From the NCBI RefSeq assembly GCF_017875645.1, contig NZ_JAGGMR010000001.1, positions 2,728,001 to 2,792,000 on the forward strand: a stretch of 64,000 nucleotides of DNA. Reading direction: 5' to 3'. Shown piece after piece: positions 32,389 to 35,551 of this stretch. Each line of letters starts with the position of its first letter. Within the stretch, counting starts at the first letter, position 1. The notes beneath the pieces are model-generated. The model was not told where the DNA came from, searched no databases, and worked only from the letters and a program-made list of their open reading frames with translations. This stretch comes from Nocardia goodfellowii (GTDB taxonomy: Bacteria; Actinomycetota; Actinomycetes; Mycobacteriales; Mycobacteriaceae). The translations under genes were made by a program, and so were the position numbers.

Positions 32389-34002
32389 TTAGACCGCGGT
32401 ACTCGTAGTCCGGGGGGCCGGCCGCCAACTCCGGCGCCCGGCCTCGGCGGGCGCCGGTGCCGCGACGCCCCGGCGGGCGACGGGCTGCGCCTTCCATGCG
32501 GCCGCCGGTGCGGCGGTGTGGCGCATCTCGTCGTGCCGAGCCATATCGTCGTGAAAGGTGTAGCCGAGCGCGTATTCCTTCGCGTGGTACATCGCCGAAT
32601 CCGCCTCCCGGATCAGGTCGTAGATGCTCGCGTCGGAGGTGCGCGGACCGGTACAGGCGATACCGACACTGGTGGTGATCGGTACCTCGCCGGCGCTCAG
32701 CTCGAAGGGGCGCACGAATGCGCCCAGTAGTCGTTCGGCCAGCATCGCGGCCTCCTGCCGCCCCAGCGGCGCCAGGATCACGAACTCGTCGCCGCCGTAC
32801 CGGGCGACCACATCGTCGCGGCGCACGACGCGCCGAATCCGGGAGGCGGCGTTGGCGATCAGCTCATCGCCGACCGCGTGGCCGTAGCTGTCGTTCACGC
32901 CCTTGAAGCCGTCCAGGTCGATGAACAGCAGGCACAGCGGTTGCCCGGCCCAGTGCTCGCTGTTGCGATTGAGCGCGCGCAGCAGGGCCGCGCGGTTCAG
33001 CAGCCCGGTGAGCATGTCGTGGTCGGCCTGGTATTGGGCGCGGCGCTCGCTGCGCTGGCTGCGCTGGATCGCCCGTTCGCTGCGCACCAGCACCCCGATG
33101 AGCAAGAGCGCGAACAGCGACGACACCACCACCCGGTCCACCGTGCCCAGACTGGAACCCACCACCGGCACCAGCGACGCCACTATCAGCGCGACCGCGA
33201 TGAAACTGGCGCGCTGCCGGGAGTGATGGGGATGGATGCGGCGCGGGCCGCCGAGGCTCGTCATCGTCGGGTGCAACGCCGCGAATCCGACGGTCGCGTA
33301 GCCCACCAGCAGCGGCGTGACCAGTATCTCGTGTCCGAACGTCGCGGTGCCGACGGTGTCGAGGCTGTAGCCGAGATCGCCGACGAGTACCGAGAACAGC
33401 GCGAGATGAAGCAGGCGCAGCGATGTTTCCGACCGGGTCGACGTCGCCACCGAATGCGCCACCAAGGTGAGCAGCAGTGCGTCCAGCACCGGGTAGGTGG
33501 CCGCGGCGATGGTGTTCAGGGTGGCCGCGTTCACCTGCAGGATCGGCGAGATCAGGAAAGTCCAGGAGGCGAGGAGTGCGCCCAGCCCGATCAGCGTGGA
33601 ATCGAGCAACAGGTCGTAGTTTCCGCGCACCTGGCGGGGCCGCAGCCACAGCGTCGCGGCCACTCCGATCCCCAGATAGCCCGCGAGCGTGAACATGTCA
33701 TCGATCGGGCTGACCGATTCCGCGGGGAACTCGCGCAAGGCGGTGCCGATGGCCGACAGCACCGCCGATACCGAGATCAAATACCAGGGCAGCGGTTGCG
33801 CGGGCCGGTGCCGGCGCAGGCCGACCGCGATCATGAACTGCGCGCCGCCGACGACGACCAGCATGGACAACAGTGCCAGTGCTGGGAAATCGACGACCAG
33901 CGGCAGCGCGATCAGCGCCGACATACCTACCAGAAGCAGCATGCACCAAGGCGTTCCGAAGGGGAACGGCTCGCTCGTCGACTGCTCTTCGCTGATTGTC
34001 AT
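32389..34002 (-). CDS. Membrane diguanylate cyclase (GGDEF)
   Basis: This 537-residue protein has eight to nine transmembrane helices in residues 15-315 (a MASE-like sensor region without a recognised name). A short linker, a GGDEF domain with the intact RYGGDEF motif at 401-407 and the upstream FIDLDGFKGVND metal loop follow. A Pro/Ala/Arg-rich tail of about 40 residues ends the protein. The intact signature predicts c-di-GMP synthesis. Its start ATG overlaps the stop of the acyltransferase-like gene by one base (TGATG), so it is translated together with the decarboxylase and acyltransferase genes upstream. Confidence 0.93.
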   Translation of the reverse strand: MTISEEQSTSEPFPFGTPWCMLLLVGMSALIALPLVVDFPALALLSMLVVVGGAQFMIAVGLRRHRPAQPLPWYLISVSAVLSAIGTALREFPAESVSPIDDMFTLAGYLGIGVAATLWLRPRQVRGNYDLLLDSTLIGLGALLASWTFLISPILQVNAATLNTIAAATYPVLDALLLTLVAHSVATSTRSETSLRLLHLALFSVLVGDLGYSLDTVGTATFGHEILVTPLLVGYATVGFAALHPTMTSLGGPRRIHPHHSRQRASFIAVALIVASLVPVVGSSLGTVDRVVVSSLFALLLIGVLVRSERAIQRSQRSERRAQYQADHDMLTGLLNRAALLRALNRNSEHWAGQPLCLLFIDLDGFKGVNDSYGHAVGDELIANAASRIRRVVRRDDVVARYGGDEFVILAPLGRQEAAMLAERLLGAFVRPFELSAGEVPITTSVGIACTGPRTSDASIYDLIREADSAMYHAKEYALGYTFHDDMARHDEMRHTAAPAAAWKAQPVARRGVAAPAPAEAGRRSWRPAPRTTSTAV

Positions 34003-34577
34003 CAGCCCCCCTTGGTCGCTCCATCCTCGGTGAACAGCGCGGCGTAGTAGGTCTGTGAATCCTCCACCGCGACTTCGACGTTCGCCTGCTGATCGAGCAC
34101 CACCCGAACTCGGTCGATGATCGATCGATGAGTGTTGTTATACGAGCAGATGTCCCAACCGACCGCTGCGCGCTCGGCCACCAAAACTTGGACAGCTGAT
34201 TTGATCATGGCATGAAAGGCGTCCCCTTGTCGCGCACTTGGGGATACGAGAGTGAACCCCGCATAGTAGATCGCGTTGCGCGCGGCATGTTCGGGAAAGC
34301 GCGCTCGGAAGTAATCCGGGCTGATCCAGGGCACTGTTTCCAGATGTCTGGTTAGTGTGGTGAGCCCGATCGGTTCGCCGGTTGTGGTGCGTGCCACATG
34401 TTTTTGTATGCGGGGGTCGACCATTTCCGCCTGGAATTCCTCAGGATGCAGAACCTGTCGGGCGATCGCCCGAGTGCGCATCGGTCCGAAGGCGTCCTCG
34501 TACAGTTTGTGAAACTGCTCGATCTGCTCCGCGGGAATCTCGGTTTCGATGGTGACGTGCAGCTCCGGTCCGGTCAT
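34002..34577 (-). CDS. GNAT-fold acyltransferase-like protein
   Basis: This 191-residue protein may have an N-acetyltransferase-type fold: LYEDAFGPMRTRAIARQVL early, a central GEPIGLTTLTRHLETVP strand-turn-strand, and a later YYAGFTLVSPSARQGDAFHAMIKSAV segment where GNATs bind CoA. The classical Q/RxxGxG/A motif is not clear, so the assignment is tentative. It lies between the arginine-decarboxylase-like gene (1 bp gap) and the GGDEF gene (1 bp overlap), which implies a shared task. An acyltransferase acting on agmatine or another decarboxylation product would be a natural model. Confidence 0.7.
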   Translation of the reverse strand: MTGPELHVTIETEIPAEQIEQFHKLYEDAFGPMRTRAIARQVLHPEEFQAEMVDPRIQKHVARTTTGEPIGLTTLTRHLETVPWISPDYFRARFPEHAARNAIYYAGFTLVSPSARQGDAFHAMIKSAVQVLVAERAAVGWDICSYNNTHRSIIDRVRVVLDQQANVEVAVEDSQTYYAALFTEDGATKGG

Positions 34578-34578
34578 C

Positions 34579-35175
34579 TCAGCTCCACGGTGTCGTGTGA
34601 TACGCGGCGAGCACCAACGCGCAGGCCGGATCGCCGGCGCATTTCGTCTCGGTGATCGAAAGTTGCACGGGCCCAAAGCTTTCCGGACGATTTGCGGTCA
34701 TATCGCGTAGGCTGGCTCGGATCAACTGCTCGACCTCCTCGGATGTCTCCGCTTCATGTTCCACGAAAAGCCCTGCGCCGGAGCCGTCATCACGCAGGAC
34801 CCAGCCGATGCCGGCGGCCGCGGACACCCCGGCCTCGGTCGCATGCTGCACGGCGTAGACGCAGTAGAGCCGATCACCCCAGCCGATGGGTTTGCGCACG
34901 CGGTCGCCGCGTTCGAGGACGGCGCGCGGCGGGATGACGGAGGAAAGCCGAATCAAGTTGGCATCACCCACTCCCAGCTCACGCAGTGCCGCGTCGAAGG
35001 CGGACATGATTGTCGGCCCGACCCCGGTCGCTGCGCCGATCTCGATCGTCAGTGGTGCCCCGTCAGCGGTGGGTACGCCGGTATGCGCGGCGCGAATCCG
35101 GCCGAGGGGCGGGCGTAGTCGTCGATCGAACCACTGCAGCCCGAGTAAGCCGCTGCGTGGGGTTGTGTGAATCAT
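34579..35175 (-). CDS. Pyruvoyl-dependent arginine decarboxylase homologue
   Basis: This is a 198-residue protein. The string NLIRLSSVIPP at 73-83 matches the self-cleavage site of pyruvoyl-dependent arginine decarboxylases, in which the second Ser (Ser79) becomes the pyruvoyl group. Supporting features are the upstream IEIGAATGVGPTIMSAFDAAL, the central AAAGIGWV turn and the family's C-terminal FVEHEAETSEEVEQL. Relatives make agmatine from arginine. It is the first gene of a three-gene operon with an acyltransferase-like protein and a diguanylate cyclase. ATG 35175 follows GGAGGG by five bases. The N-terminal extension of about 35 residues is longer than in the archaeal enzyme. Substrate specificity is not shown. 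Confidence 0.85.
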   Translation of the reverse strand: MIHTTPRSGLLGLQWFDRRLRPPLGRIRAAHTGVPTADGAPLTIEIGAATGVGPTIMSAFDAALRELGVGDANLIRLSSVIPPRAVLERGDRVRKPIGWGDRLYCVYAVQHATEAGVSAAAGIGWVLRDDGSGAGLFVEHEAETSEEVEQLIRASLRDMTANRPESFGPVQLSITETKCAGDPACALVLAAYHTTPWS

Positions 35176-35551
35176 AGTGCCCTCCCACTGAAACATCCGA
35201 CCCATTTTGCCGGTCGATTTTGCGTCAAATTGACTGTGCGCTACGAACCGCGATCCCGCACGGGGACGCGGCGAAACCCGTGCTCACCCGGCGTGTCGCC
35301 GAAGCGGGATCCGATGTCCTTGCCGCCGTGCGGTTTTCGTGTGAGGTGGGTCACGTCATAGGACGGTTGTTCGAGCGACCGGCGAGCGACCCGCGTGGAC
35401 TAAGCAACTGACCAGGTTTATCGTCGAATGTGGTCTTGCGGCGCGGCGCGGTCGCGCACAGTAGATGGCAGCCGACAATGTCCGGCGGGTACCACCCACA
35501 CTCGCAGGACCCTGCTCGACGCCAGGTTTCACCGCCAGGAGGGACGACGCT

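What the first reader, a model, noticed from the sequence alone, without database searches (positions are those of the whole stretch)
32389..35175. Operon of an arginine-decarboxylase homologue, an acyltransferase-like protein and a diguanylate cyclase
The three genes are tied by TGAGATG (1 bp gap) and TGATG (1 bp overlap), so they must be made in fixed ratio. A pyruvoyl-type decarboxylase (Ser79 in LSSVIPP), a probable CoA-dependent transferase and an eight-helix GGDEF protein with intact active site suggest a pathway making an acylated agmatine-like product. The membrane part of the cyclase might sense it. I know of no described system of this kind in actinobacteria.
Basis: partly seen in the sequence, partly recalled or inferred. 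Interest (0 to 1): 0.75.

Follow-up and report, generated by a model that had tools for sequence, protein, structure and literature searches.

The report
Amine-acylating enzyme pair with membrane sensor
Three linked bacterial genes look like a small signalling kit: two enzymes that would make an acylated amine and a membrane sensor that may detect it; relatives keep the acyltransferase but often swap in unrelated decarboxylases and unrelated sensors.

Summary
In detail: a pyruvoyl-type decarboxylase (DC), a GNAT-fold acyltransferase (AT) and a membrane diguanylate cyclase (DGC) form one Nocardia operon. All 34 Nocardia loci fetched for their DC keep DC-AT-DGC order. Among 394 genomes of the class, PvlArgDC occurs in 12, each time with AT within 200 bp. 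In 34 non-Nocardia AT loci a multi-pass membrane sensor lies beside AT (25) or one gene away (8), and a decarboxylase in the same cluster in 22. Both partners are exchanged for non-homologous ones: PLP-dependent lysine/ornithine-type decarboxylases (11 loci, fused to AT in two) and an unrelated 7TM histidine kinase (10 loci, three assigned by kinase similarity only). Outputs: GGDEF, GGDEF-EAL or histidine kinase. Best reading: a signal synthase-receptor module making an acylated diamine or agmatine, working like LuxM/LuxN (homology not tested). Substrate, acyl donor, ligand binding and cell-cell role are inferred. Against: the sensor domain is widespread without AT; in 35 other Nocardia genomes it is in all, AT in 14 plus one remnant; 12 AT loci have no decarboxylase nearby.

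The parts
34579..35175 (-). DC: pyruvoyl-dependent decarboxylase of the PvlArgDC family (198 aa)
   Evidence: PF01862 E 1.1e-24; aligns to 1n2m; N73, S79 and E139 invariant in 21 aligned sequences
34939..34941 (-). codon of Ser79, predicted pyruvoyl precursor and cleavage point (LS^SVIPP)
   Evidence: beta chain 1mt1_A ends at the residue aligned to S78
35180..35186 (-). ribosome-binding-site-like GGGAGGG, 4 bases before the DC start codon
   Evidence: read from the sequence
34002..34577 (-). AT: GNAT-fold acyltransferase (191 aa), no Pfam family
32389..34002 (-). DGC: membrane diguanylate cyclase (537 aa)
   Evidence: PF00990 E 9.7e-40
33058..34002 (-). N-terminal membrane sensor domain (residues 1-315, ten modelled helices), no Pfam family; shared with histidine kinases and GGDEF-EAL proteins in AT clusters elsewhere
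   Evidence: model pLDDT 85.9; hhalign 98.6%, E 1.3e-15 over 280 columns to histidine-kinase N-termini
32575..33027 (-). GGDEF domain (residues 326-476)
   Evidence: PF00990
32782..32796 (-). GGDEF motif; I-site R394xxD397 lies just upstream

Best explanation
DC, AT and DGC form one signalling module. DC (after self-cleavage) decarboxylates a basic amino acid to a primary amine, most likely arginine to agmatine. AT acylates that amine with an acyl group from acyl-CoA or acyl-ACP. The product, perhaps lipophilic enough to need no dedicated exporter, is sensed by the 10-helix membrane domain, which sets the output of the attached domain: c-di-GMP synthesis here, GGDEF-EAL or histidine kinase elsewhere. 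AT is the signal synthase proper and DC its substrate supplier. Shown: gene order, conservation, co-occurrence, fusions, predicted folds, intact catalytic motifs. Inferred: substrates, product, ligand binding, and whether the signal passes between cells.
For: (1) DC-AT-DGC in the same order and strand in 21 of 21 named Nocardia loci and 13 of 13 unnamed ones, all fetched because they hold DC, species overlapping, while flanks rearrange. (2) In 394 class genomes AT is in 19 and PvlArgDC in 12, all 12 within the AT set with a copy within 200 bp of AT (Fisher 2e-18 by genome, 7e-7 by genus, relatedness ignored). (3) In 35 Nocardia genomes 13 have clear DC and all 13 have AT. (4) A multi-pass sensor is beside AT in 25 and one gene away in 8 of 34 non-Nocardia loci. 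(5) One sensor domain is shared between cyclases and histidine kinases of these clusters. (6) PLP decarboxylases replace PvlArgDC in 11 loci (Pfam); the three compared with solved structures are nearest to lysine/ornithine decarboxylases; two ORFs fuse decarboxylase to AT. The AT tree puts PLP pairing on two separate branches (100/100 and 98/97). (7) In 10 loci the receptor is a histidine kinase of another 7TM type; the five N-termini compared do not match the 10-helix domain (hhalign 1.3%).
Against: The sensor domain is found in 75 of 394 class genomes, mostly without AT (a lower bound); 20 such sensor loci were read and none has AT or DC within the 5-10 kb fetched. In Nocardia the cyclase is in 35 of 35 genomes and AT in 14 plus a remnant, so the receptor must also work alone or sense something else. 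12 of 34 non-Nocardia loci have no decarboxylase nearby. One AT-PLP-decarboxylase pair (L092) has no sensor within 14 kb. G017 keeps AT and DGC but has no PvlArgDC. DC is below the arginine-decarboxylase equivalog cut-off. D102, constant in AT-linked sensors, is also D in 11 of 20 AT-less ones. No ligand, activity or product is known.
Confidence: 0.6

Rival explanations
1. Metabolic module: DC and AT make an acylated polyamine used as a compatible solute, nitrogen store or natural-product building block, and the membrane protein only regulates it in response to another cue.
For: Polyamine acetyltransferases share the AT fold (8a9n, 1tiq, 3bj8 among hits). The sensor is present in Nocardia without AT/DC.
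Against: Apart from response-regulator genes in arrangement A, I saw no further pathway or transport gene recurring beside AT (neighbours were checked in part only). 12 loci reduce to AT plus sensor. The linked sensor is exchanged between two unrelated receptor types, yet is seen in 33 of 34 loci.
Confidence: 0.2
2. AT acylates the sensor or another protein rather than a small amine, and DC supplies an unrelated polyamine effector.
For: RimI-, NatD- and Naa60-type protein acetyltransferases are among the best structural matches.
Against: Two decarboxylase-AT fusions and two unrelated decarboxylase families beside AT point to the amine as AT's substrate.
Confidence: 0.1
3. The operon is only a neighbourhood: three genes with separate functions kept together by inertia in Nocardia.
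For: Flanking genes (SSF symporter, DUF6319, TetR, FMO) are also partly syntenic in Nocardia, and the cyclase keeps its place beside DUF6319 without DC-AT.
Against: The association recurs in other families and classes with different order, strand and gene families; DC and AT are mostly absent together; fusions exist.
Confidence: 0.04

Closest known systems
LuxM/LuxN and AinS/AinR autoinducer systems of Vibrio
   Same: A synthase works with a multi-helix membrane receptor; LuxN is a histidine kinase predicted to have nine TM helices with its ligand site between helices four and seven (PMC5007282, passages). The L077-L084 clusters likewise pair an acyltransferase with a multi-helix histidine kinase.
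   Different: Different phylum; amine supplied by a dedicated decarboxylase; receptor also wired to c-di-GMP; homology to LuxM or LuxN was not tested.
Pyruvoyl-dependent arginine decarboxylase (M. jannaschii PvlArgDC, Chlamydia AaxB)
   Same: Same Pfam family, cleavage serine, and the residues aligned with M. jannaschii N47 and E109 (their catalytic role is recalled).
   Different: Below the NCBIfam equivalog cut-off; coupled to an acyltransferase instead of the porin and arginine:agmatine antiporter of aaxABC (PMC2720952, passages).
FeeM N-acyl amino acid synthase, and long-chain N-acyl amines from environmental DNA such as palmitoylputrescine
   Different: 7% identity; no better than many other GNATs in the list; no receptor known to me.
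Putrescine quorum sensing linked to c-di-GMP in Dickeya (PMC12239582, search listing only)
   Same: By its title and abstract start, an amine signal linked to c-di-GMP.
   Different: By the listing it concerns putrescine itself; I did not read the paper.

Membership tests
PvlArgDC (PF01862) | Pfam score over the gathering cut-off | tested here: met
   87.5 bits against 22.7
PvlArgDC (PF01862) | cleavage serine | tested here: met
   S79 aligns to the cleavage point, invariant in 21 sequences
PvlArgDC equivalog (TIGR00286) | NCBIfam equivalog cut-off | tested here: not met
   54.8 bits against 106.95; arginine specificity is therefore not assigned by family
PvlArgDC equivalog (TIGR00286) | arginine decarboxylase activity | not testable with these tools
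   needs an enzyme assay
GNAT superfamily | GNAT fold | tested here: met
GNAT superfamily | [R/Q]xxGxG/A acyl-CoA pyrophosphate loop (motif recalled) | tested here: inconclusive
   R/Q in 33 of 38 and G three residues later in 21 of 38 ATs; the window AT has D there
Diguanylate cyclase | GGDEF motif and I-site | tested here: met
   GGDEF 403-407, R394xxD397
Diguanylate cyclase | c-di-GMP synthesis | not testable with these tools
   needs an assay
LuxM/LuxN-type autoinducer system | synthase gene clustered with a multi-pass membrane receptor gene | tested here: met
   sensor beside AT or one gene away in 33 of 34 non-Nocardia AT loci; that AT makes a signal is inferred
LuxM/LuxN-type autoinducer system | sequence homology to LuxM or LuxN | not tested
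   no LuxM or LuxN sequence was compared
LuxM/LuxN-type autoinducer system | diffusible signal sensed by the receptor | not testable with these tools
   needs LC-MS and binding assays

The most novel reading that the evidence does not exclude
An undescribed class of small-molecule cell-cell signalling in Actinomycetota: N-acylated diamines or agmatine made by a decarboxylase-GNAT pair and read by two unrelated families of multi-pass membrane receptors, wired interchangeably to c-di-GMP turnover or histidine kinases. The cyclase kept without AT/DC in many Nocardia would be a 'solo' receptor that listens to neighbours.
Probability: 0.4. Interest if true: 0.9.

Novelty: new variant of a known kind. 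Interest (0 to 1): 0.76.

Why it matters
If right, it adds a signal chemistry, a synthase family and a widespread uncharacterised sensor domain to bacterial communication, in a phylum where membrane receptors for small non-peptide autoinducers are little known to me. It predicts an input for cyclases carrying this domain and can be tested directly: delete DC-AT, look for the missing metabolite, add it back and measure c-di-GMP. It would also explain why 12 of the 14 PvlArgDC matches in the 394 sampled genomes of the class lie beside this acyltransferase (the other two are extra copies in the window's own genome).

Full report
What is there. The window lies in a Nocardia-like genome: all 21 named loci found with DC are Nocardia. 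On the minus strand, DC (35175-34579), AT (34577-34002) and DGC (34002-32389) follow each other with a 1 bp gap and a 1 bp overlap. DC matches PF01862; its cleavage serine S79 and the residues aligned with M. jannaschii N47 and E109 (N73, E139) are invariant in 21 aligned sequences, which include both other copies in this genome. It falls below the NCBIfam arginine-decarboxylase equivalog cut-off, so arginine is the likely, not the proven, substrate. AT has no Pfam family but a confident model with GNAT fold. DGC carries an intact GGDEF and I-site behind a membrane domain modelled as ten helices.

Conservation within Nocardia. DC-AT-DGC stand in the same order and strand in 21 of 21 loci from named genomes and 13 of 13 from unnamed Nocardia genomes; all were fetched because they hold DC, and the two sets overlap in species. 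Flanks vary: in several loci the SSF symporter is missing or the TetR/FMO block is on the other side. In 35 other Nocardia genomes the DGC sensor domain is found in 35, AT in 15, one of them a C-terminal remnant, and clear DC in 13. All 13 DC genomes have AT. G017 keeps AT and DGC without DC; G007 has DGC, an AT remnant and no DC. Of the 20 genomes without AT I read 18 DGC loci (L104-L121): DUF6319 lies downstream of DGC in 18 of 18, as in the window, with weak AT fragments (E 0.001) in two. So DC-AT is an accessory part beside a cyclase present in all these genomes; remnants suggest loss in some lineages.

Outside Nocardia. AT was found in 19 of 394 class genomes (10 of 137 genera) and 17 of 396 phylum genomes (13 of 236 genera). 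PvlArgDC was found in 12 of the 394 class genomes; all 12 are in the AT set and in each a copy lies within 200 bp of AT, match to match. There were 14 PvlArgDC matches; the two not beside AT are extra copies in the window's own genome. The association is far from chance (Fisher 2e-18 by genome, 7e-7 by genus; both ignore relatedness).

Four arrangements occur in 34 non-Nocardia AT loci (17, one, 16). A, 11 loci: PvlArgDC + AT + sensor domain. In eight (L077-L084) the order is sensor kinase (PAS-HisKA-HATPase where checked) - DC - AT, with a receiver or response-regulator gene next in seven of eight; in L055 the sensor is a GGDEF-EAL protein between AT and DC; in L085 and L086 it is a PAS-GGDEF-EAL protein divergent from AT-DC. 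B, 12 loci: AT beside sensor-GGDEF-EAL, all 12 by Pfam, no decarboxylase nearby (L087-L091, L093, L167-L170, L174, L176). C, 10 loci: PLP decarboxylase + AT + convergent histidine kinase of another 7TM type (L171-L173, L175, L177-L182). D, one locus: PLP decarboxylase + AT, no sensor seen (L092). Sources. In C the L178 and L182 kinases are cut by contig ends, L180's decarboxylase is in pieces (only its C-terminal domain was checked by Pfam), and PF16927 itself was matched in seven of ten, in L181 below its cut-off; L178, L180 and L182 are assigned by similarity to the L172 kinase.

One sensor domain, several outputs. Profile comparison of the cyclase and histidine-kinase N-termini gives 98.6%, E 1.3e-15 over 280 columns. 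A profile built only from cyclase sensors, run on 755 predicted proteins of the loci at E up to 10, hits cyclases of AT loci, four of the eight AT-linked histidine kinases and the two PAS-GGDEF-EAL proteins (with pieces of the same genes in shorter loci), and nothing else; the loci of this genome's other seven GGDEF matches (L094, L096-L101) were in the set. Conversely, the kinase-built profile hits 16 Nocardia cyclases besides the kinases. As a negative control, five arrangement C kinase N-termini do not match the domain (1.3%). The domain is not exclusive to AT clusters: 75 of 394 class genomes have it by a single-sequence search, and 20 sensor loci without AT in 5-10 kb were read, one of them in a genome with AT elsewhere.

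Exchange of the decarboxylase. PLP decarboxylases lie beside or fused to AT in 11 loci. The three compared with solved structures are nearest to lysine/ornithine decarboxylases (L092: 2plj 5e-67; L171: 5gjm 3e-64; L181: 5gjm 1e-63) and further from diaminopimelate decarboxylase (best 4e-23, 5e-37 and 4e-33). Two open frames, L178 (602 aa) and L181 (598 aa), carry decarboxylase (about residues 10-380) and AT (about 410-585) in one chain. A search of 5.8 billion proteins for this AT part in proteins of fusion-like length returned two clusters, L181's own and one other of 415 aa, both with the decarboxylase domains; it missed L178, so it is not exhaustive. The AT tree places arrangement C in one branch (100/100) and L092 elsewhere, with class ATs of arrangement B (98/97). 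One AT family has thus been paired with two non-homologous decarboxylase families, the PLP kind on two branches. The simplest reading is that AT acylates the amine.

Mechanism. Shown: clustering, predicted folds, intact motifs, exchange of partners, fusion. Inferred from family knowledge: amine formation and acyl transfer. Inferred from genome logic: the product is the sensor's ligand, because sensor type changes but a multi-pass membrane sensor is in the cluster in 33 of 34 loci; that it is lipophilic, because I saw no recurring exporter. Whether it acts between cells is open. The arrangement works like LuxM/LuxN (PMC5007282 passages), but homology was not tested, so I do not file it there.

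Limits. Sampling is 394 and 396 overlapping sets of genomes with few candidates scored in each; neighbours were read with a simple gene caller and only partly checked by Pfam; relatedness inflates the statistics; no ligand, substrate or activity is known.

Noticed in passing
L057:8028-8672 (+): A second PvlArgDC paralogue in this genome (59% to DC) begins with a twin-arginine-like signal (GRRSFLVVGGLGAAMA, read by eye) and has N where DC has D61; no AT or DGC match in the 20 kb fetched. A possibly exported pyruvoyl decarboxylase.
   Followed up: partly
L057:15873-16454 (-): A third, distant PvlArgDC paralogue (21% to DC) 7 kb away, beside genes matching S-adenosylhomocysteine hydrolase, Cupin_5 and amidohydrolase families: perhaps a biosynthetic cluster.
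   Followed up: partly
window 33058-34002: The membrane sensor domain has no Pfam family yet is found in 75 of 394 sampled class genomes, up to five matches per genome (five is also the scoring cap), in open frames of many lengths: an unnamed widespread sensor domain.
   Followed up: partly
L102, L103, L108, L109: Nocardia loci where DC and/or AT are missing or reduced to fragments while a cyclase match remains, resembling solo receptors.
   Followed up: partly
L084:6671-7528 (+): In one arrangement A locus the gene after AT is a receiver plus Trans_reg_C protein rather than a lone receiver, giving a possible DNA-binding output.
   Followed up: no
L167 and L170 (genome G551): One genome carries two AT-sensor pairs, on separate branches of the AT tree.
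   Followed up: no
L170:6984-7907 and L176:5354-6334: Two arrangement B loci have a PhoH-like gene beside AT; probably ordinary neighbourhood.
   Followed up: no
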